Part shown: positions 7,810 to 25,582 of the stretch, piece after piece
Layout of the letters: each line of letters starts with the position of its first letter
Position numbering within the stretch: the first letter of the stretch is position 1
DNA from: a virus
Direction: 5' to 3' (one strand)
IMG/VR virus record: IMGVR_UViG_3300005468_000053
Coordinates: 1-28,169 of that record
Length of the DNA stretch: 28,169 bases
Notes under the pieces: generated by a model
Told to the model about the DNA's origin: nothing
Databases searched by the model: none
What the model saw: only the letters and a program-made list of their open reading frames with translations
Position numbers and translations under genes: made by a program

Positions 7810-8202
7810 CTACTCCTTCTCGGCCGGGGCTGCCTTGACTGCCTTGGCTGCCCTGGCCGCGCGAGCGGCCGCGAGGCGGTCGGGCTTGGCCTGCTCGGGC
7901 TCGATGCCCTTTGCCTTGAGGTGCGCAGCGACCTCCTCCGGCTCACAGGCGACGATACGCGCCGGCCGGTCGGTGCCGGGCAGCTTCTCGAGCATGGCGA
8001 TCCGCACCGCCGCGGTGTCGGTCACCTGCATCGGCACCGGGATCTGCTTGCTGTGGTCGGGGTGCCCATCACGCAGAACGGTTGGCGCGTGCACGTGCTC
8101 GATCTTGAGCTCGGCCGGCCCGCCATCCTCGCTCATCTCGAGGACCTCCTGGTAGAACGACGCGCGTGGGTGGGCCGCTTTGACCCAGATCTTGCCTGGC
8201 AT
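7810..8202 (-). CDS. Small protein downstream of the major capsid gene, unknown function (130 aa)
   Basis: ATG at 8202 follows CAGGAGGTTTCCGC, an excellent ribosome site. The longer open frame upstream is the antisense-like +1 reading of the capsid gene. The N-terminal half is beta-strand-like (MPGKIWVKAAHPRASFYQEV and LKIEHVHAPTVLRDG). The last 35 residues are an Ala/Lys/Arg helix (RLAAARAARAAKAVKAAPAE), probably extended. Proteins at this position may be minor capsid or neck factors. No family is recognised. Confidence 0.65.
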   Translation of the reverse strand: MPGKIWVKAAHPRASFYQEVLEMSEDGGPAELKIEHVHAPTVLRDGHPDHSKQIPVPMQVTDTAAVRIAMLEKLPGTDRPARIVACEPEEVAAHLKAKGIEPEQAKPDRLAAARAARAAKAVKAAPAEKE

Positions 8203-8270
8203 GCGGAAACCTCCTGAGTGGGATGGATGTGCGGGCTGCCTCGGACCCGGCAGTTGGGCAGAGCGGCTCT

Positions 8271-9524
8271 TTAGACGAAGGTCAGGGTCGAGCTCGCGAG
8301 GGCGAGGAACTTGTCGAATCCGATCACCTGGCTCACGACGATTTCGTTCAGCTGTGAGCGGATGTCTTTGTCGGTCTCTGTCAAAGCCGAGTTGTTCTCG
8401 ACCAGCTGCTCGATGCCGAACCGCTTGTCGAGGCCGACCAGTAGGCCACCCGGGGCCCAAGGGTGGTAGACGAGGTTGACGTTGACGCCGTAGATGTTTA
8501 CGGACATCGACAGCTTGCCGGTCTGTACGCGCTGGTCCGGCTGCTGGAGCAACGCCAGCAGGGTGAGTGGGTCGACGTTGGGGAACTGCAGGGTGAGCAC
8601 CTGGAGCAGCTCGTTGAGCCGCCCGATGACGGTGGTCATGTGCAGCGGATAGAGGGAGGCACGGAAGATGAGCCAGGCCTTGTAGGTCAGGCCCTTGGTG
8701 ATGGTCGACGTCTGGCTGGTCACCAGGTCGGTGACGGTGCCGGGGCCCGCCGGCGCTGCGGGGTCGAGCGACGAGGCGTTGAAGTTCGGCGCCGCGTTGC
8801 CGTTGCCGTCGCCGTTCTGCAGGATGTTGATGGCGTGGGTGGCCAGGTCGAGCTTGATCTGCATCGCGATGCGGGCGAGGAAGAGCGAGAACAGGTCGAC
8901 GCGCAGGCGGCGGTAGGTCTCGTATGTGCCCTTGAGGGCGACGCCGTACTTCTGCAGCTTGACGTTGTTCTCGAAGGTGGCGATGGTGATCGGTGGGATC
9001 TCTGCGCCCTCTTCGACCCTCTGCAGCTGGCGCTGTGACTGCCCGGGCGCCGTCTGGATGTTGTCGTTGAGGTAGATGGCCTTGTACGTGTCGGTGTCGA
9101 TCGGGGTCACCTGGGCCACGATGTCGCCGAGCACATCCTCGGGCAGGGGGATGATCCTCATCTGCCGGTTGATGAACTCCGGGTAGAGGATCCAGGACTG
9201 CGGCTGGTCGCTGGCGAAGAACCGGGTGCCGTCGGGCTTGATCGGGTTGTAGAACTCCTCGAGCCGCGAGGCGGGCTTCATCAGACGCAAGTCCGGCTTG
9301 GTCCTGATGTTGAAGTGGTGCAGCTGGCGCTCGAAAGCGTCGAGCTTTCCAAGCGACGAGTACTCGCCCGAGTCGGGGTATCGCTCGCTCGGATCGACTT
9401 CCTCGAGCTTGGCCGACAGGCGCTTGCGCTCGTTGCGGCACTCGCGCACGATCTGCCAGTCGGCTCCCTCGGCCTTGAGGATCTCCTGGAACGACGGCTT
9501 GAACTGCGTGATGGTGGGGGCCAC
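8271..9524 (-). CDS. Major capsid protein, HK97-type fold predicted (417 aa)
   Basis: This builds the icosahedral head. GTG at 9524 lies 11 bases after AAAGGAGGAAA. The N-terminal ~75 residues are charged and helical (QIVRECRNERKRLSAKLEEVD), like a delta/scaffold domain, and may be removed by the protease encoded upstream. The body has patterns typical of HK97-fold capsid proteins: WILYPEFINRQMRIIPLPEDV, YKAIYLNDN, then a P-domain-like segment with VEEGAEIPPITIATFENNVK and a helical spine (FSLFLARIAMQIKLDLATHAI). It closes with a beta-rich part. Length and position after protease and decoration genes agree. Confidence 0.85.
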   Translation of the reverse strand: MAPTITQFKPSFQEILKAEGADWQIVRECRNERKRLSAKLEEVDPSERYPDSGEYSSLGKLDAFERQLHHFNIRTKPDLRLMKPASRLEEFYNPIKPDGTRFFASDQPQSWILYPEFINRQMRIIPLPEDVLGDIVAQVTPIDTDTYKAIYLNDNIQTAPGQSQRQLQRVEEGAEIPPITIATFENNVKLQKYGVALKGTYETYRRLRVDLFSLFLARIAMQIKLDLATHAINILQNGDGNGNAAPNFNASSLDPAAPAGPGTVTDLVTSQTSTITKGLTYKAWLIFRASLYPLHMTTVIGRLNELLQVLTLQFPNVDPLTLLALLQQPDQRVQTGKLSMSVNIYGVNVNLVYHPWAPGGLLVGLDKRFGIEQLVENNSALTETDKDIRSQLNEIVVSQVIGFDKFLALASSTLTFV

Positions 9525-17045: not shown

Positions 17046-17534
17046 TTAGTTGAGCGGCGACATCGCCGACTGGATCTCGAATGTGCCCGTCTGCGCCGCC
17101 GCCCCGTTGACGTACACGAAGCGGATGAACCGCAGCAGCGACTTGGTCGGCACGATGCGCGCACCAAAACTCGTGGCGGCGACGGTGCCCGGCGAGCCGT
17201 GGGTCGCGGGCTCGGCGGCGGCCGCCTGGGTCGCGACCTGGTAGATGTTCGCGCCCGAGGCCGCGCTCGACTCGTCCATGAGCAGGGTGCCCGCCTGGCC
17301 GCCGGACACGTTCGACTTCGCGCCGGCCCAGTTGTAGTTGGTCGTGTCGCGCATCGACCCGGTGAACGTGGCACTCGACCCGAGCAGCGCTGTGGTCTCG
17401 GCGTTGAACTGCGAGATGTCCTGCACGGCCTGCCCTGGGTTCGTGAACAGAAGCGTGCCGCCGTCGTCGGTCACGTCGGTCTTGCCCGCGGCCAGGCGAA
17501 CAAGGTCGCGGGTGTATTCCTGCTCCTGCTTCAA
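17046..17534 (-). CDS. Beta-rich predicted virion protein (162 aa)
   Basis: The start is TTG at 17534, which overlaps the MuF stop as TTGA and has GGAGG seven bases upstream. The next gene in the same direction begins right after its stop. The N-terminus is helical and charged (KQEQEYTRDLVRLAAGKTDV). The rest is Ser/Thr/Ala/Gly-rich with strand patterns (GTLLFTNPGQAVQDISQFNA, SLLRFIRFVYVNGAAAQTGT). It is the first of a set of similar-style proteins encoded from here to 14748. Decoration or fibre role is inferred. Confidence 0.6.
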   Translation of the reverse strand: MKQEQEYTRDLVRLAAGKTDVTDDGGTLLFTNPGQAVQDISQFNAETTALLGSSATFTGSMRDTTNYNWAGAKSNVSGGQAGTLLMDESSAASGANIYQVATQAAAAEPATHGSPGTVAATSFGARIVPTKSLLRFIRFVYVNGAAAQTGTFEIQSAMSPLN

Positions 17535-18709
17535 CCTGCTTCCTCCAAATCTCCGCCGGCCCACGGCGTGGTCGGCAGGTGCCAGTCGTCGGGAATCACT
17601 GGAGACCAGTAGTGTGTGCAGCGAGGGTGGATAGGGATGAGGCTCACAGCCTCGTCCGAATCCACGTCAAAGCGTTCACCGACGTACTCGTCGCAAATGT
17701 CGCCGCTGTATCCGCCGTCAACCTCGACTTGCGCGACGTCGTTCTCGCGATATGTGTCGAGTTCGGCAGCAGCTGACGCACGCGCCATCTCCGTCGACGC
17801 GATCGTGATGCCGCGCACTGTGCTCGCTTCGTCCCAGGTCTCGTCGATCGCCTCTGCTTTCTCGACGATCGTTCCGTCGCTGGCGAGGATTGCACGCAGA
17901 ATCTCGGCCGTTGTCTCGTCGATGCCGACGATCCGATCGAGGAGCAGCGCGTCGACGCGCTCTTGAAGCTTCGGATCGTCGATTGAGAAGTCGCCACCGA
18001 CCACGAGCCCACCGTCGCGCCTGGCTTTCCTACGGAAATCCTCCGCTCGTAGGATGTCGAGCGCATGCTGTCCAGCTGCCCGATAGGCATGGCGCTGATG
18101 CGGGAGCAGCCCTTTGGCGTCGAAGTGGGGATTCCAGCCGGCCAGCTCGTCGTGGTTGGTGACTCCATGGTCGACGTGGGTGAGTAGACCTGTTGCCCGG
18201 GCCCACATGTCGAAGGCTGCCTGTTGCCGGCGAAACTCGAGGCGAACCGCGGCGACGTATGCGCGCCAGATGGTGACGCCGCCGGGCAGTCGCAGCAGGT
18301 TGCCGGGCGGTGTCTCCGACTGTGTGCGCGCAACGTCGCCCGAGGCTCGCATCGCGGCTATAGCTAGCGCGCGGGCCCGCTCCTGTGCCGCCCAGGCGAA
18401 GTAGCGCCGCAGGGTGGCGGGTTGCGGGTCCTCCTTGATGCAGGCCCACAGGCCCTCGAGGGTGACGACGCGCGCGAAGGCGGTCAGCTCGCCCGCCGGC
18501 GGCGGCAGTTTGCCAAGAGCTTCGACCAGGTCACCCTTTACCGGGCTTCGCCAAAAGCGGGCGTCGAGGTGACGCTCCAGCTCGTGCCCCTCGCGGAGCA
18601 GGAGCTCCTGTAGCCCTACAGCGAGGCGGTCACTTTTTCTTTGCGCGGGAGGCTGACTTGGCAGCGCGTGCCGAGTGCTTCGCGGTCCGGACCCTCGCGT
18701 GATGGCCAC
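17531..18709 (-). CDS. MuF/SPP1 gp7-like head morphogenesis protein (about 392 aa)
   Basis: The C-terminal ~100 residues carry the MuF signature: ITIASTEMARASAAAELDTY, CDEYVGERFDVDSDEAVSLI and PIHPRCTHYWSPVIPDDW. This protein enters the procapsid and is linked to portal and DNA ejection in related phages. The N-terminal two thirds are helical. The start is uncertain: GTG at 18709 overlaps the small basic gene by about 80 bases, and another GTG lies at 18730. The more natural N-terminus seems to begin near 18601, where CTG follows AGGAGCTC. TGA at 17533-17531 overlaps the next start. Confidence 0.85.
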   Translation of the reverse strand: MAITRGSGPRSTRHALPSQPPAQRKSDRLAVGLQELLLREGHELERHLDARFWRSPVKGDLVEALGKLPPPAGELTAFARVVTLEGLWACIKEDPQPATLRRYFAWAAQERARALAIAAMRASGDVARTQSETPPGNLLRLPGGVTIWRAYVAAVRLEFRRQQAAFDMWARATGLLTHVDHGVTNHDELAGWNPHFDAKGLLPHQRHAYRAAGQHALDILRAEDFRRKARRDGGLVVGGDFSIDDPKLQERVDALLLDRIVGIDETTAEILRAILASDGTIVEKAEAIDETWDEASTVRGITIASTEMARASAAAELDTYRENDVAQVEVDGGYSGDICDEYVGERFDVDSDEAVSLIPIHPRCTHYWSPVIPDDWHLPTTPWAGGDLEEAG

Positions 18710-18752
18710 CGTGGCGGTTGTGGTGCCCACCCGTTTTGACCGTCTTTGCCAC
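18630..18752 (-). CDS. Small very basic His/Lys/Arg-rich protein (40 aa)
   Basis: Between portal and MuF, a GTG at 18752 one base after the portal stop opens a 40-codon frame. It reads VAKTVKTGGHHNRHGGHHAR, then RTAKHSARAAKSASRAKKK. About half of the residues are Lys, Arg or His. It is histone-tail-like and would bind DNA. No ribosome site is visible, so coupling to portal translation is likely. It has been easy to miss because the MuF frame overlaps it. It may be packaged with DNA or help condense it. Confidence 0.5.
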   Translation of the reverse strand: MAKTVKTGGHHNRHGGHHARVRTAKHSARAAKSASRAKKK

Positions 18753-18753
18753 G

Positions 18754-20412
18754 TCAGCGGTAGCGCTCGAGCATGCGCTCGACCTCGCGCTGTGCGGCGA
18801 TATGTGCATACACGAGACCCATACCTGGGCCGGAGCGCACGATTGTTTCGGCCCACCGCGCGGGCTCACCAGCTGCAGCTTTTCCACCCGGAGCAGGTGG
18901 AGTGCCGGGTGGCATCGGCTGAGGCATTCCCTTGGGCGGCGCGAGCGGCGCGGGCGAGGGTGATGGCGCGGGCCCGACTGCATCGGACTCGGTCACCTCG
19001 TTGGACGCGTCGTCCTGCGAGATCCAGCCCTGGTCGCGCTTGTTTGCGGCGTTCTCGATCTCCTGCGCTTCAGCCATTGCATCCTGCAGGCGCTGCGTGG
19101 TCCGGATGGGGGCCCACTCGTGCTGCACCTCGCACTGCACGCCACGGAATTGCAGCGCGACAGTGAGGGCTCGAACCAGTACCTCGGCGACTATCTCGCG
19201 CAGGGTCACGCATGAGGCGCCATAGATCTCGTACTCGACCGTTCCGTAGGTCTCGGTCTCACCCTTTCCCTGTCCCCCACCGTGAAAGATGGGCAGCGTC
19301 TTGAGAGCGACGATGAGCTGGTCGCGAAAGATCGCGACGATCTTCTCAGGCTCGAGCGCGCGCCCACCGCTGCCTCTTCCACCCTGACCCATTTCCTTGT
19401 GGTGGTCGGCGCTGACGAAGTCCCAGTGGATGAAGGCGTCCTCGGGGGCCATCGAGTTGTAGGCCGCAACGAGCTCCTGCATCCGCGCGGTCATCCATGC
19501 GTACTTCGCGCCCTCATCCTCGAGCACCTCGGCCGGCATGGTCGGCTCGAGCAACTCGTACACCATCGTCAGGTCGACGCGCGGGAACCCCATCTGGTGC
19601 ATCACTCGCTGCAGGTCGCGGAGGATTGAGACGAGACCGAACACGATCTGGAGCGCGGCTGCAGCCGGCGCTCGGCCATAAGGGTCGTCGATGAACGGGT
19701 CGACAGGGTTGTAAAAGAAGGTCTCCTCGTTCATCATCCGGTACGGGTACGCAGCTGCGAGGTTGCCCCAGATCGCCTGCCGCTGGAAGGGCACGAGCTT
19801 TTGCTCCTCGTCGCGCTGGAACCAGATCGAGTCCGGGTTGACGGCGTAGATGTCGTCGAGGTCCTTCAGGTTCTTCGTCGGCGCGGCCTCGGCGCACACC
19901 GCGCCCTGGAGGTAAGCGCTGAGGAGCAGCTGACGAGTCAGTGCATCGATGCCGCCGAACTGCGGGTTGGTACCGAGGATGAGGTCGTCGAGATGCTTCT
20001 GGCCCTGCGGGAACTCCTTGCCATTGGGGGTGACCGCTGTGAACTTCAGGTCGGTACCGCAGGTGCGCAGATATGACCAGACGGCTATCGAGAAATCGGG
20101 ATTGAGGTCGGGAAGGATGGCGAGGAGCTGGTCGGCCGTGAACTGCGTGACATCGAGCTCCTCGACGTCGATCTCTTGGTACTGACGCTTCGGGATGAAG
20201 TACCACCCGCTCAGCCCGAACGGGTTGTAGTTCATCGGCTGCGTCTGCCGTCCGGCAGTCGCAGGCGGGAAGGCGTACTTGTCGGAGATCGCCCTCGTGG
20301 CCGGCGTCATCAGGTTCTTCGTTGGCCGGCTGCGCTTTCGCGCCATGCGCGGCAGTTGGGGCAGTCGCGCCCAGTTGCGCGCTGCGTTTTCGAGGTCGCG
20401 CCTGTTCGCCAT
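18754..20412 (-). CDS. Portal protein (552 aa)
   Basis: This is the dodecameric ring at the DNA entry vertex. ATG at 20412 overlaps the upstream stop as ATGA. The order terminase, portal, MuF supports it. The central body has portal-like helices and wings: ADQLLAILPDLNPDFSIAVW, TRQLLLSAYLQGAVCAEAAP, and a 'SIWFQRDEEQKLVPFQRQ' strand pair. It continues with VDPFIDDPYGRAPAAAALQI, a hallmark arrangement (P-x-DDPYGRAP) of portals, and the long helix VFGLVSILRDLQRVMHQM. Residues about 470-520 are Pro-rich and probably flexible. The C-terminus is a helix. Confidence 0.9.
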   Translation of the reverse strand: MANRRDLENAARNWARLPQLPRMARKRSRPTKNLMTPATRAISDKYAFPPATAGRQTQPMNYNPFGLSGWYFIPKRQYQEIDVEELDVTQFTADQLLAILPDLNPDFSIAVWSYLRTCGTDLKFTAVTPNGKEFPQGQKHLDDLILGTNPQFGGIDALTRQLLLSAYLQGAVCAEAAPTKNLKDLDDIYAVNPDSIWFQRDEEQKLVPFQRQAIWGNLAAAYPYRMMNEETFFYNPVDPFIDDPYGRAPAAAALQIVFGLVSILRDLQRVMHQMGFPRVDLTMVYELLEPTMPAEVLEDEGAKYAWMTARMQELVAAYNSMAPEDAFIHWDFVSADHHKEMGQGGRGSGGRALEPEKIVAIFRDQLIVALKTLPIFHGGGQGKGETETYGTVEYEIYGASCVTLREIVAEVLVRALTVALQFRGVQCEVQHEWAPIRTTQRLQDAMAEAQEIENAANKRDQGWISQDDASNEVTESDAVGPAPSPSPAPLAPPKGMPQPMPPGTPPAPGGKAAAGEPARWAETIVRSGPGMGLVYAHIAAQREVERMLERYR

Positions 20413-20921
20413 CAGGCGGCGCGACCGAGTGCGCGGACCTGCGCCTCGAGACGCTTGCCCTGCTCGACGAAACCGATATTCGGGCTCGTTTGGGGCCGAC
20501 GGATCCGGACGGCGGTGAGAGCAGCGTCCCAGTCAACGTCGAGCGCGGCCATGTGCAGGCATGTGTCAAGCAGCCCGCTCCGGCTGATGCCCGCAGCACA
20601 CAGATCGATCACGTGATAGCCCCGCCGCAGCACTGTGAGCAGCGTGCCCACGAGCACGATGAGCTGATCGTCGGGCAGGCAGCCCTCAGGCGAGTCCTCG
20701 ATGCCCACATATACGTAGGCGAGCACCTTCGCGCGATGGTCGACGAGGCGTTCATAGTCCCACGCCCGCGCCTCGACGTTCATCGCGACGATGACGAGGC
20801 CCTTCTCTGTGGCGGCCTCGACCGCCTTGAGGCCTTCGTCGTCGAGCATCCCGCCTTGCCAGATCGAGCCCCAACCAGGCCGCAGGCCGTCGAGGTCGAT
20901 GCGGTCTCCGGACCAGGTCAA
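20412..20921 (-). CDS. Dual-specificity-phosphatase-like protein (169 aa)
   Basis: The sequence has the Cys-based phosphatase motif CX5R at residues 108-114 (HVIDLCAAGISRSG) with the usual strand before it and helix after it. A probable general-acid loop contains Asp76 (VGIEDSPEG). The N-terminal SIWQGG resembles the first strand of dual-specificity phosphatases, and RRPQTSPNIGFVEQGKRLE matches the 'RP..PN..F..QL' helix. It would hydrolyse phosphate from proteins or other substrates in the cytoplasm. TTG at 20921 overlaps the upstream TGA as TTGA. The frame extends further upstream but only over the preceding gene. Substrate is unknown. Confidence 0.75.
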   Translation of the reverse strand: MTWSGDRIDLDGLRPGWGSIWQGGMLDDEGLKAVEAATEKGLVIVAMNVEARAWDYERLVDHRAKVLAYVYVGIEDSPEGCLPDDQLIVLVGTLLTVLRRGYHVIDLCAAGISRSGLLDTCLHMAALDVDWDAALTAVRIRRPQTSPNIGFVEQGKRLEAQVRALGRAA

Positions 20922-21412
20922 TCTCGCGGAATCTCGTGCGGGTTCTCTGCGGTCAGGTTGATGGTGACCCACTCCGTGCCGCCCTCGAGCTCGGCATGAC
21001 CGGTGACAGTTGCCTTGAACGGTCCGACCCCGAGCTTCCCTGAGTCGATCAGGGATTCACATGCGGACTTGGATGCGCGCAGCTGCTCCTCGACGCGCTC
21101 ACGCAACGCGAGGTTGCCATCGAACGCCGGCAGCACGCCAGCGATGGCCTCGTCCGCAGATGCGGGAAAGTCGGCGCCCGCTATCGCGACGACCTGGCCG
21201 TCGCTCATCTTCGGGATGCTGATGCCGTAGCTCATTTCGAACTCCTCCGGCGCTTTGCGCGCTCTGGTTGGCTTCTTTTTCGCGAGCTCATCGGCTCGCA
21301 GCGCTGCGTCCATGCGGTCATCGAGGCGGGTCCGGGCTTCCTCACGCCACACTGTGTCCAGTAGGGCCTCGAGATCGTCTTGTGGCGAGCTCGGCGCAAA
21401 GGTGTCGGGCAT
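20918..21412 (-). CDS. Protein of unknown function upstream of the phosphatase-like gene (164 aa)
   Basis: I do not recognise a family. ATG at 21412 follows GGGAGG. The N-terminal 60 residues are charged and helical (DLEALLDTVWREEARTRLDD, AALRADELAKKKPTRARKAP). A compact domain follows: YGISIPKMSDGQVVAIAGAD, ALRERVEEQLRASKSACESL and a terminal strand pair (FKATVTGHAELEGGTEWVTI). It is translationally coupled to the phosphatase-like gene, so the two may work together. Confidence 0.7.
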   Translation of the reverse strand: MPDTFAPSSPQDDLEALLDTVWREEARTRLDDRMDAALRADELAKKKPTRARKAPEEFEMSYGISIPKMSDGQVVAIAGADFPASADEAIAGVLPAFDGNLALRERVEEQLRASKSACESLIDSGKLGVGPFKATVTGHAELEGGTEWVTINLTAENPHEIPRD

Positions 21413-23980: not shown

Positions 23981-25582
23981 CTACCGGCGGCCGCGGCCGC
24001 CGGCGGCGACCATCGGAAATACCGGAGTCGGCTTGGTCGCGGTCGACTCGGGCCGGCGACGCTTGATGCGGTCAGCTGACCAGCCACCTGTGCCGGCCTG
24101 AGGCATGAGACGGCTGACGTCGCCCCGCGGCATACGCGCTTTTCGTTTCTCCTTGTCGTCGTAAAGGCCGAACAACTCGGTCAGCGCCCACACGAGCGCA
24201 TCCATGCGGTTCGGGCTCTCGCGGGCCTCATCTGGCACCCATCCTGTCTGCTCACGCTCGAGTTCCGGAAAGAAGCCGACATGGTGGACGATGTGGCGGT
24301 CGTAGAGCATCGAAACCGGCTCGGCGCGCACCGCCTTGCCGCGGCTGGCCCGAACGACCTTGACCGCAATGTTGCGGTGGCCCGCGCCATGGATCGTGTT
24401 CTCGACCATGTCGCCGCCGAAGTTGACCTCGGCGATCACCTTGTCCGCGTGCCGGGCCGAATAAGTCCCGTCGAGTCTCGGCACCCAAATGTCCGGACCG
24501 CCCTTGGCCGACACGTCGTCGAGGACGTAGGCGTGACCGTCGTTGCCTTTGGCCACGGTGAGGATGCCGTTCTCGGTGCGGCCGCCGGCGGGGTCAACGC
24601 CGCAGACGACACGGACCAGGCGCAACCCCTCGTCGAGGCGCTTCTCAAAAGCCCCGACGGTAATCCGATCGATGTCGATCGCCGATTGCTTCCAGAGCGA
24701 GCCCTCGAGCTCCTCGAGGATGTCGCCGTAGACCTCCTGCCGGCCGAGACGCGAGTGCTCGACGTCGGCGATGGTCTCCTGGAACTCTTCGGCCAGGTTG
24801 GTGAAGTTGTCGTGCGAGGAGCGAACGGTCAGAGCTGCTCGCGGATGTGCCGATAGCCACTTGATGACCTTGTGGTTCTTCGGCGTCGTCGTGATGATCA
24901 GCTTCACGCCGCCGTGCTTGTGCTTGACACGCATCGTGTAGCGGATCTGGTCCCACGCCTCGTCGAGTCGCTTCCACGCCGCAAGCTCATCGAGCCATGC
25001 GCGCACGAACTGCACGCCGCGGAAGCGATCCGGATCATCAGCTGACCGCAGCTCGACGATCACGTCGTTGGGAAACGTGAGGCGCAACTTCGACGGCTCG
25101 TAGTCGGGCATGAAGTCCGGCGGCGCTACCTTCAGGACCGAGGAGGGCCCGACCTCGACCATCGTGTCTCGGACGTCTTGCGCCGTAGGACCGCCCATGA
25201 GCAAGGGACCGATCCCGGCGCGCGCCCACTCGATGATCGCCTGGGCTCCCGTCTCGGTCTTGCCGAAGCCGCGGCCGCAGCGAAGCAGCCAGTAGACCCA
25301 CGAGTCATCCGTGACCGGATCCCCGCTTTCGCCAGACGGCAGCTTGGAATCGACAGTTGCGGCCCAACGAGCTCCGGTTGCTGCTGGGGTGCCGGGCAGG
25401 AGCTGCTCGGGCCGCGCCTTTCCGTCCTGAAACGCCGGCGCGCGGGCGAGACGATCGCGTGCCTGCGTCTCGACGAGGGCTGCCTCATAACCACGTGGCC
25501 ACGGGACTTCCCCGCGCCACGCCGGCCGGTCGTTCTCTTCATCGGCGAACAATTCCGCCGTGCGAGCAAAGACGCCCGTCAC
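23981..25582 (-). CDS. terL: Terminase large subunit (533 aa)
   Basis: The packaging motor ATPase and nuclease. The ATPase domain has a Walker A at residues 102-109 (CGRGFGKT), a Walker B at 195-200 (AWLDEL) and a coupling motif at 230-235 (TTTPK). The nuclease domain has three acidic residues in the expected places: Asp330 (CGVDPAGG), Glu385 (IAEVNFGG) and Asp461 (NRMDALVW). The protein is full length for the family. GTG at 25582 overlaps the upstream TGA as GTGA, so it is coupled to the small subunit. The last 40 residues are basic and probably flexible. Confidence 0.95.
   Translation of the reverse strand: MTGVFARTAELFADEENDRPAWRGEVPWPRGYEAALVETQARDRLARAPAFQDGKARPEQLLPGTPAATGARWAATVDSKLPSGESGDPVTDDSWVYWLLRCGRGFGKTETGAQAIIEWARAGIGPLLMGGPTAQDVRDTMVEVGPSSVLKVAPPDFMPDYEPSKLRLTFPNDVIVELRSADDPDRFRGVQFVRAWLDELAAWKRLDEAWDQIRYTMRVKHKHGGVKLIITTTPKNHKVIKWLSAHPRAALTVRSSHDNFTNLAEEFQETIADVEHSRLGRQEVYGDILEELEGSLWKQSAIDIDRITVGAFEKRLDEGLRLVRVVCGVDPAGGRTENGILTVAKGNDGHAYVLDDVSAKGGPDIWVPRLDGTYSARHADKVIAEVNFGGDMVENTIHGAGHRNIAVKVVRASRGKAVRAEPVSMLYDRHIVHHVGFFPELEREQTGWVPDEARESPNRMDALVWALTELFGLYDDKEKRKARMPRGDVSRLMPQAGTGGWSADRIKRRRPESTATKPTPVFPMVAAGGRGRR

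What the first reader, a model, noticed from the sequence alone, without database searches (positions are those of the whole stretch)
20412..20921. Cys-X5-Arg phosphatase-like gene coupled to the portal gene
Residues 108-114 carry CX5R with a fitting general-acid loop and C-terminal helix, so an active dual-specificity-type phosphatase is plausible. Such a gene in the packaging/head block, sharing start and stop bases with the portal and with an unknown protein, is not part of the usual phage set. It could act on a host phosphoprotein, a phosphorylated virion protein or a signalling nucleotide.
Basis: partly seen in the sequence, partly recalled or inferred. Interest (0 to 1): 0.7.

Follow-up and report, generated by a model that had tools for sequence, protein, structure and literature searches.

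The report
Phage phosphatase gene in packaging block
A soil-type bacterial virus carries, locked between its DNA-packaging genes, a gene for a dual-specificity-type phosphatase of the kind best known from animal cells and large DNA viruses, and three otherwise different phages carry the same enzyme in their virion-building genes, which suggests a late or virion-borne enzyme aimed at a phosphate signal.

Summary
Window 20412-20921 (-) encodes a 169-aa protein that scores as a dual-specificity phosphatase (DSP; Pfam PF00782, E 4e-8, exactly at the curated cut-off). Its AlphaFold model (pLDDT 87.5) matches solved DSPs. The gene overlaps its upstream neighbour by TTGA and the portal gene by TGATG.

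New here: the protein belongs to a well-supported clade (100/99) found in four phage types whose portal proteins fall in different families. It sits next to terminase in two, beside the portal and 3.6 kb from terminase in the window's type, and downstream of the major capsid gene in the fourth. In all 12 records of other phage-DSP clades where terminase was located, it is 25 kb or more away. Phage DSPs as such are known (PHROGs; haloarchaeal tailed viruses such as HSTV-2); this head-block clade was not found described.

Most likely it is an active Cys phosphatase, co-translated with the portal and deployed late or from the virion against a host phosphate mark. Substrate, activity and virion packaging are untested. 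One caution: Leu replaces the usual His before the catalytic Cys.

The parts
20412..20921 (-). DSP-fold cysteine phosphatase gene, 169 aa, TTG start, TGA stop
   Evidence: Pfam PF00782 E 4.2e-8; AF2 model pLDDT 87.5 and PDB fold matches; relatives
20580..20600 (-). Codons of the P-loop C108-A-A-G-I-S-R114 (CX5R)
   Evidence: translation; Cys, Gly111, Ser113, Arg114 invariant in alignments A2/A3
20694..20696 (-). Codon of Asp76, candidate general acid
   Evidence: Invariant in A3; in the loop after strand 66-74; role inferred from family knowledge (DUSP22 Asp57, VHR Asp92)
20469..20483 (-). Codons of the P-N-x-G-F motif (residues 147-151), shared by the phage clade and by DUSP22
   Evidence: with the P-loop pattern it recovers the clade
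20918..20921 (-). TTGA overlap: stop of the upstream gene and TTG start of the DSP
20410..20414 (-). TGATG overlap: DSP stop and portal ATG share base 20412
18754..20412 (-). Portal protein gene, 552 aa
   Evidence: phrog_3753 portal E 2e-54
20918..21412 (-). Upstream coupled gene, 164 aa, function unknown
   Evidence: No Pfam, PHROGs, NCBIfam or PADLOC match; structure model poor, pLDDT 61
17531..18856 (-). Minor head (MuF-like) protein gene
   Evidence: PHROGs minor head/portal C-terminal matches, e.g. phrog_115 E 1.8e-7
23981..25582 (-). Terminase large subunit gene
   Evidence: Pfam Terminase_6N 9.4e-14 and Terminase_6C; phrog_979

Best explanation
The gene makes an active DSP-fold phosphatase: Cys108 attacks the phosphate, Arg114 and the loop backbone hold it, Asp76 protonates the leaving group, and water then releases the phosphate. 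Through overlapping junctions it is translated with the portal, so it is made late, in step with head assembly. It is an accessory enzyme carried in the structural operons of several phages with different head proteins, and its most likely role is to remove a phosphate from a host protein (or, less likely, a host signalling molecule), either late in infection or after delivery with the virion. Shown: fold, conserved catalytic residues, junction overlaps, repeated head-block location. Inferred: catalysis, late expression, host target, and possible virion packaging.
For: DSPc domain E 4e-8, and E 1e-15, 2e-10 and 7e-7 in the three other clade members. AF2 model and DSP fold matches, E about 1e-8. 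Catalytic residues invariant in 12 viral proteins. Clade support 100/99. Location: just upstream of TerL in G002 and G003, between TerL and portal in the window and G006, downstream of MCP in G004. 3 of 4 clade-1 records have the DSP within 4 kb of TerL, against 0 of 12 in other phage-DSP clades. Portal families differ: phrog_3753, 2662, 145, 12. The DSP is the only protein that all four phages share by phmmer. P-loop CAAGISRS is of the protein-DSP type (family knowledge).
Against: No assay exists. The usual His before the Cys is Leu here and Gly in one relative, which could weaken the nucleophile. No Hanks-type kinase was found in the four records, so there is no phage-encoded partner. In G004 the DSP is not near the portal. 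The sample is four phage types, and the location comparison was made after the pattern was seen.
Confidence: 0.6

Rival explanations
1. The enzyme acts on a phosphorylated phage virion or packaging protein, or works at the portal vertex itself, regulating assembly or packaging.
For: Tight coupling to the portal gene and head-block location in other phages. Precedent: baculovirus PTP sits in the apical portal-anchor ring (PMC12103608).
Against: The phages sharing it have different portal families, and phmmer finds almost no other shared head-block protein. No phage protein kinase was found.
Confidence: 0.17
2. It acts on a small molecule or nucleic acid end: the terminal phosphate of an ADP-ribose derivative, a signalling nucleotide, or RNA 5' phosphates, as a counter to host defence.
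For: Phage head operons are known to carry NAD/ADP-ribose enzymes likely packaged in heads, including NUDIX fused to portal (PMC9503650); one clade member, G002, has such a portal-NUDIX protein two genes from its DSP. DSP-fold RNA 5'-triphosphatases exist (baculovirus PTP).
Against: No NUDIX in the other three records. The P-loop CAAGISRS resembles protein DSPs, not the CTHGxNRTG loop of RNA triphosphatases (family knowledge). No match in PADLOC.
Confidence: 0.18
3. It is a catalytically weak or dead DSP fold kept as a structural or adaptor protein.
For: Leu replaces the usual His before Cys108, Gly in G003. The best PDB fold match is the pseudophosphatase STYX (2r0b).
Against: Cys, Arg, Asp and Ser113 are invariant; STYX has lost the Cys (family knowledge). 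LMW-PTPs work without His there (family knowledge).
Confidence: 0.05

Closest known systems
Dual-specificity phosphatase family, Pfam PF00782 (DUSP22/JSP-1, DUSP14, DUSP15 by sequence and fold)
   Same: Fold, P-loop CxAGxSR, general-acid Asp, PNxGF motif at the same spacing as DUSP22
   Different: About 20-24% identity; Leu before the catalytic Cys; encoded in a phage head operon
Phage DSP families phrog_32716 and phrog_10650; haloarchaeal tailed virus DSPs (HSTV-2 gp51, HRTV-7 gp48)
   Same: Small stand-alone DSPs in tailed viruses
   Different: The window protein matches neither PHROG; HSTV-2 gp51 lies in the replication block beside a helicase and near a kinase, not in the head block
Phage proteins annotated tyrosine phosphatase (Stenotrophomonas phage DLP3 gp139, Vibrio phage R21Y ORF101)
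   Same: PTP-superfamily genes in tailed phages
   Different: Homology to the window clade not tested; DLP3 gp139 lies near thymidylate synthase and DNA polymerase
Vaccinia VH1 and baculovirus PTP (virion-associated DSP-fold phosphatases)
   Same: DSP fold in a DNA virus; both are virion components (VH1 reported in lateral bodies, PMC6336343; baculovirus PTP at the portal anchor, PMC12103608)
   Different: Different viruses and no close sequence kinship; virion packaging of the phage protein is unknown
Phage head-packaged NAD/ADP-ribose enzymes (ART, Macro, NUDIX fused to portal or MuF)
   Same: Accessory enzyme carried in the morphogenesis genes (PMC9503650)
   Different: Different enzyme class; stand-alone, not fused to a head protein

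Membership tests
Dual-specificity phosphatase (PF00782) | Domain score over curated cut-off | tested here: met
   33.5 bits against cut-off 33.5 for the window protein; 58.2 and 41.0 for two relatives, 29.5 (below) for a third
Dual-specificity phosphatase (PF00782) | Cys and Arg of CX5R conserved in homologues | tested here: met
   Invariant in A2 and A3
Dual-specificity phosphatase (PF00782) | His immediately before Cys (HCX5R; usual signature, not essential to the Pfam definition) | tested here: not met
   Leu107 in the window, Gly in G003, His in G002 and G004
Dual-specificity phosphatase (PF00782) | General-acid Asp in the loop before the P-loop | tested here: met
   Asp76 invariant
Dual-specificity phosphatase (PF00782) | DSP fold | tested here: met
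   AF2 pLDDT 87.5, pTM 0.87; top 50 PDB matches are DSP-fold proteins, TM about 0.6-0.7
Dual-specificity phosphatase (PF00782) | Hydrolysis of phosphotyrosine and phosphoserine/threonine | not testable with these tools
   Needs protein and assay
DSP-fold RNA 5'-triphosphatase | P-loop of HCTHGxNRTG type | tested here: not met
   LCAAGISRSG; the reference motif is family knowledge
Known phage DSP PHROGs (32716, 10650) | Profile match of the window protein | tested here: not met
   No PHROGs match for the window protein; relatives G004 (1e-8) and weakly G003 match
VH1-like virion-packaged phosphatase | Protein present in purified virions | not testable with these tools
   Head-block location is consistent only

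The most novel reading that the evidence does not exclude
A virion-carried phage phosphatase: a DSP co-translated with the portal, loaded into or onto the head and delivered with the DNA to strip a host phosphorylation signal at the start of infection, a bacterial-virus counterpart of vaccinia VH1 or the portal-vertex PTP of baculovirus.
Probability: 0.25. Interest if true: 0.8.

Novelty: new variant of a known kind. Interest (0 to 1): 0.5.

Why it matters
Virion-associated DSP-fold phosphatases are known from poxviruses and baculoviruses. A DSP clade that recurs in the structural genes of phages with different head proteins is a concrete candidate for the same strategy in bacteria, and would point to a host phosphorylation event that matters for phage success. 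The claim is cheap to test: one small enzyme, one Cys-to-Ser mutant and one virion proteome.

Tried and rejected
Chance CX5R motif: rejected. Kinase-phosphatase pair: no Pkinase match in the four clade-1 records. Companion ADP-ribose/NUDIX pathway: NUDIX only in G002. Defence-system component: no PADLOC match. Isolated phages and plasmids: no tblastn match to the window protein. Cellular relatives: the genome scan returned only two haloarchaeal DSPs outside the clade, so origin and host remain unknown. The first pattern scan was void through a miscounted spacer; repeated. Structure of the upstream 164-aa protein: too poor to use. A claim that the DSP is the only protein shared by any pair of the four phages was dropped after the whole records were compared: G002/G006 and G004/G006 share others. 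A claim of portal linkage in all four was dropped: in G004 the portal hit is 57 kb away in record coordinates.

Full report
Observation. The ORF at 20412-20921 on the minus strand is real. It starts with TTG and gives 169 residues. Its start overlaps the stop of the upstream 164-aa gene as TTGA, and its stop overlaps the portal ATG as TGATG. Codon-position GC is close to that of the portal and TerL genes. Against the nearest non-identical contig, 12 of 18 differences fall at third positions; five residues change, none of them catalytic. Two contigs (62.5 and 28.9 kb) carry a DSP, portal and TerL identical to the window's at the DNA level, so the window looks like a piece of the same virus.

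What the protein is. Pfam DSPc matches at E 4.2e-8, exactly at the curated cut-off. phmmer against the PDB finds DUSP22 first (E 4.9e-5), aligning CAAGISRSG with CLAGVSRSV and SPNIGF with NPNVGF. An AlphaFold model built on 12 viral sequences has mean pLDDT 87.5 and pTM 0.87, with strand 103-107, the CX5R loop, and helix 114-127. The top 50 PDB fold matches are DSP-fold proteins (STYX, DUSP1/5/7/8/10/12/14/15/18/22, SDP-1, archaeal PTP, baculovirus PTP-2), TM mostly 0.6-0.7. Viral-library matches are DSPs of giant viruses, an iridovirus and baculoviruses. Cys108, Gly111, Ser113, Arg114 and Asp76 are invariant in the alignment. One departure from the family signature: the residue before Cys is Leu here, Gly in G003, His in G002 and G004.

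Relatives. A degenerate DNA pattern and profile-guided scans of viral contigs gave a tight clade (support 100/99): the window's virus; G003, seen on three contigs; G002; and G004, at about 30-36% identity to the window. All are short stand-alone DSPs with a [W/Y/F]QG motif near the N-terminus and PNxGF near the C-terminus. More distant viral DSPs occur mostly on larger contigs. The isolated-phage collection gave no match to the window protein; one relative finds haloarchaeal tailed viruses whose DSP (HSTV-2 gp51) lies in the replication block.

Location. In the window's virus the order is TerL, small genes, 164-aa gene, DSP, portal, MuF-like protein. In G002 the DSP is 0.4 kb before TerL, which is followed by a portal with a C-terminal NUDIX domain. 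In G003 it is 1 kb before TerL, with the portal after that. In G004 it lies 4.3 kb after the major capsid gene and before a 1095-aa possible tail gene that matched no PHROG, overlapping both neighbours by a few bases, but far from that record's portal. In 12 records of other phage-DSP clades where a TerL was located, the DSP is 25 kb or more away. Three of four against none of twelve gives Fisher p 0.007, or 0.018 if related records are merged; this is post hoc, the records are not independent, several TerL hits are weak, and the other records are mostly larger. The portals belong to different PHROGs (3753, 2662, 145, 12). In whole-record phmmer comparisons the DSP is the one protein shared by all four; a few other proteins are shared by pairs.

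How it most likely works. Established knowledge of the family gives the chemistry: Cys108 forms a phosphocysteine intermediate, Arg114 binds the phosphate, Asp76 is the general acid. The P-loop CAAGISRS is of the protein-DSP type, not the CTHGxNRTG type of RNA triphosphatases. Junction overlaps and late-gene surroundings imply co-translation with the portal (inference). Because the same enzyme serves phages with different head proteins, a host phosphoprotein or signal is a better guess than a particular phage structural protein (inference; single-sequence comparison can miss remote homology between head proteins). Head operons are a known place for enzymes thought to be packaged and injected, including NUDIX fused to portal (PMC9503650), and DSP-fold enzymes are virion components in vaccinia (PMC6336343) and baculovirus, where PTP sits at the portal anchor (PMC12103608). 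Packaging here is therefore possible but unproven.

Verdict. Phage DSPs are known; a DSP clade resident in phage structural blocks was not found described in the papers searched, a search limited to open-licence papers. Interest 0.5.

Noticed in passing
L033:8179-11589 (+) (record IMGVR_UViG_3300021178_000002): Portal protein with a C-terminal NUDIX domain (Pfam Phage_portal 5.6e-15 and NUDIX 1.9e-15), two genes from the DSP; an example of the portal-NUDIX fusions described in PMC9503650.
   Followed up: partly
L021:11622-12359 (-) (record IMGVR_UViG_3300027854_000006): Endonuclease VII-like gene divergent from and next to the DSP (phrog_2633 E 1.7e-18).
   Followed up: no
record of L082 (IMGVR_UViG_3300014047_000001), about 8057-8875: Terminase frame contains two in-frame TAG codons, a possible TAG-recoded phage that also carries a DSP-like gene.
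   Followed up: no
L032:4483-5247 (+) (record IMGVR_UViG_3300037418_003024): Sigma-factor-like gene (phrog_1740 E 4.4e-12) inside the structural block shortly upstream of the DSP.
   Followed up: no
L088:3207-8441 (+) (same record): 1744-aa protein with DEAD/Helicase_C domains, possibly an antirestriction or DNA-handling protein.
   Followed up: no
window:25579-26259 (-): Gene next to TerL, family phrog_3678 of unknown function; also found in G002 on the far side of its record.
   Followed up: partly
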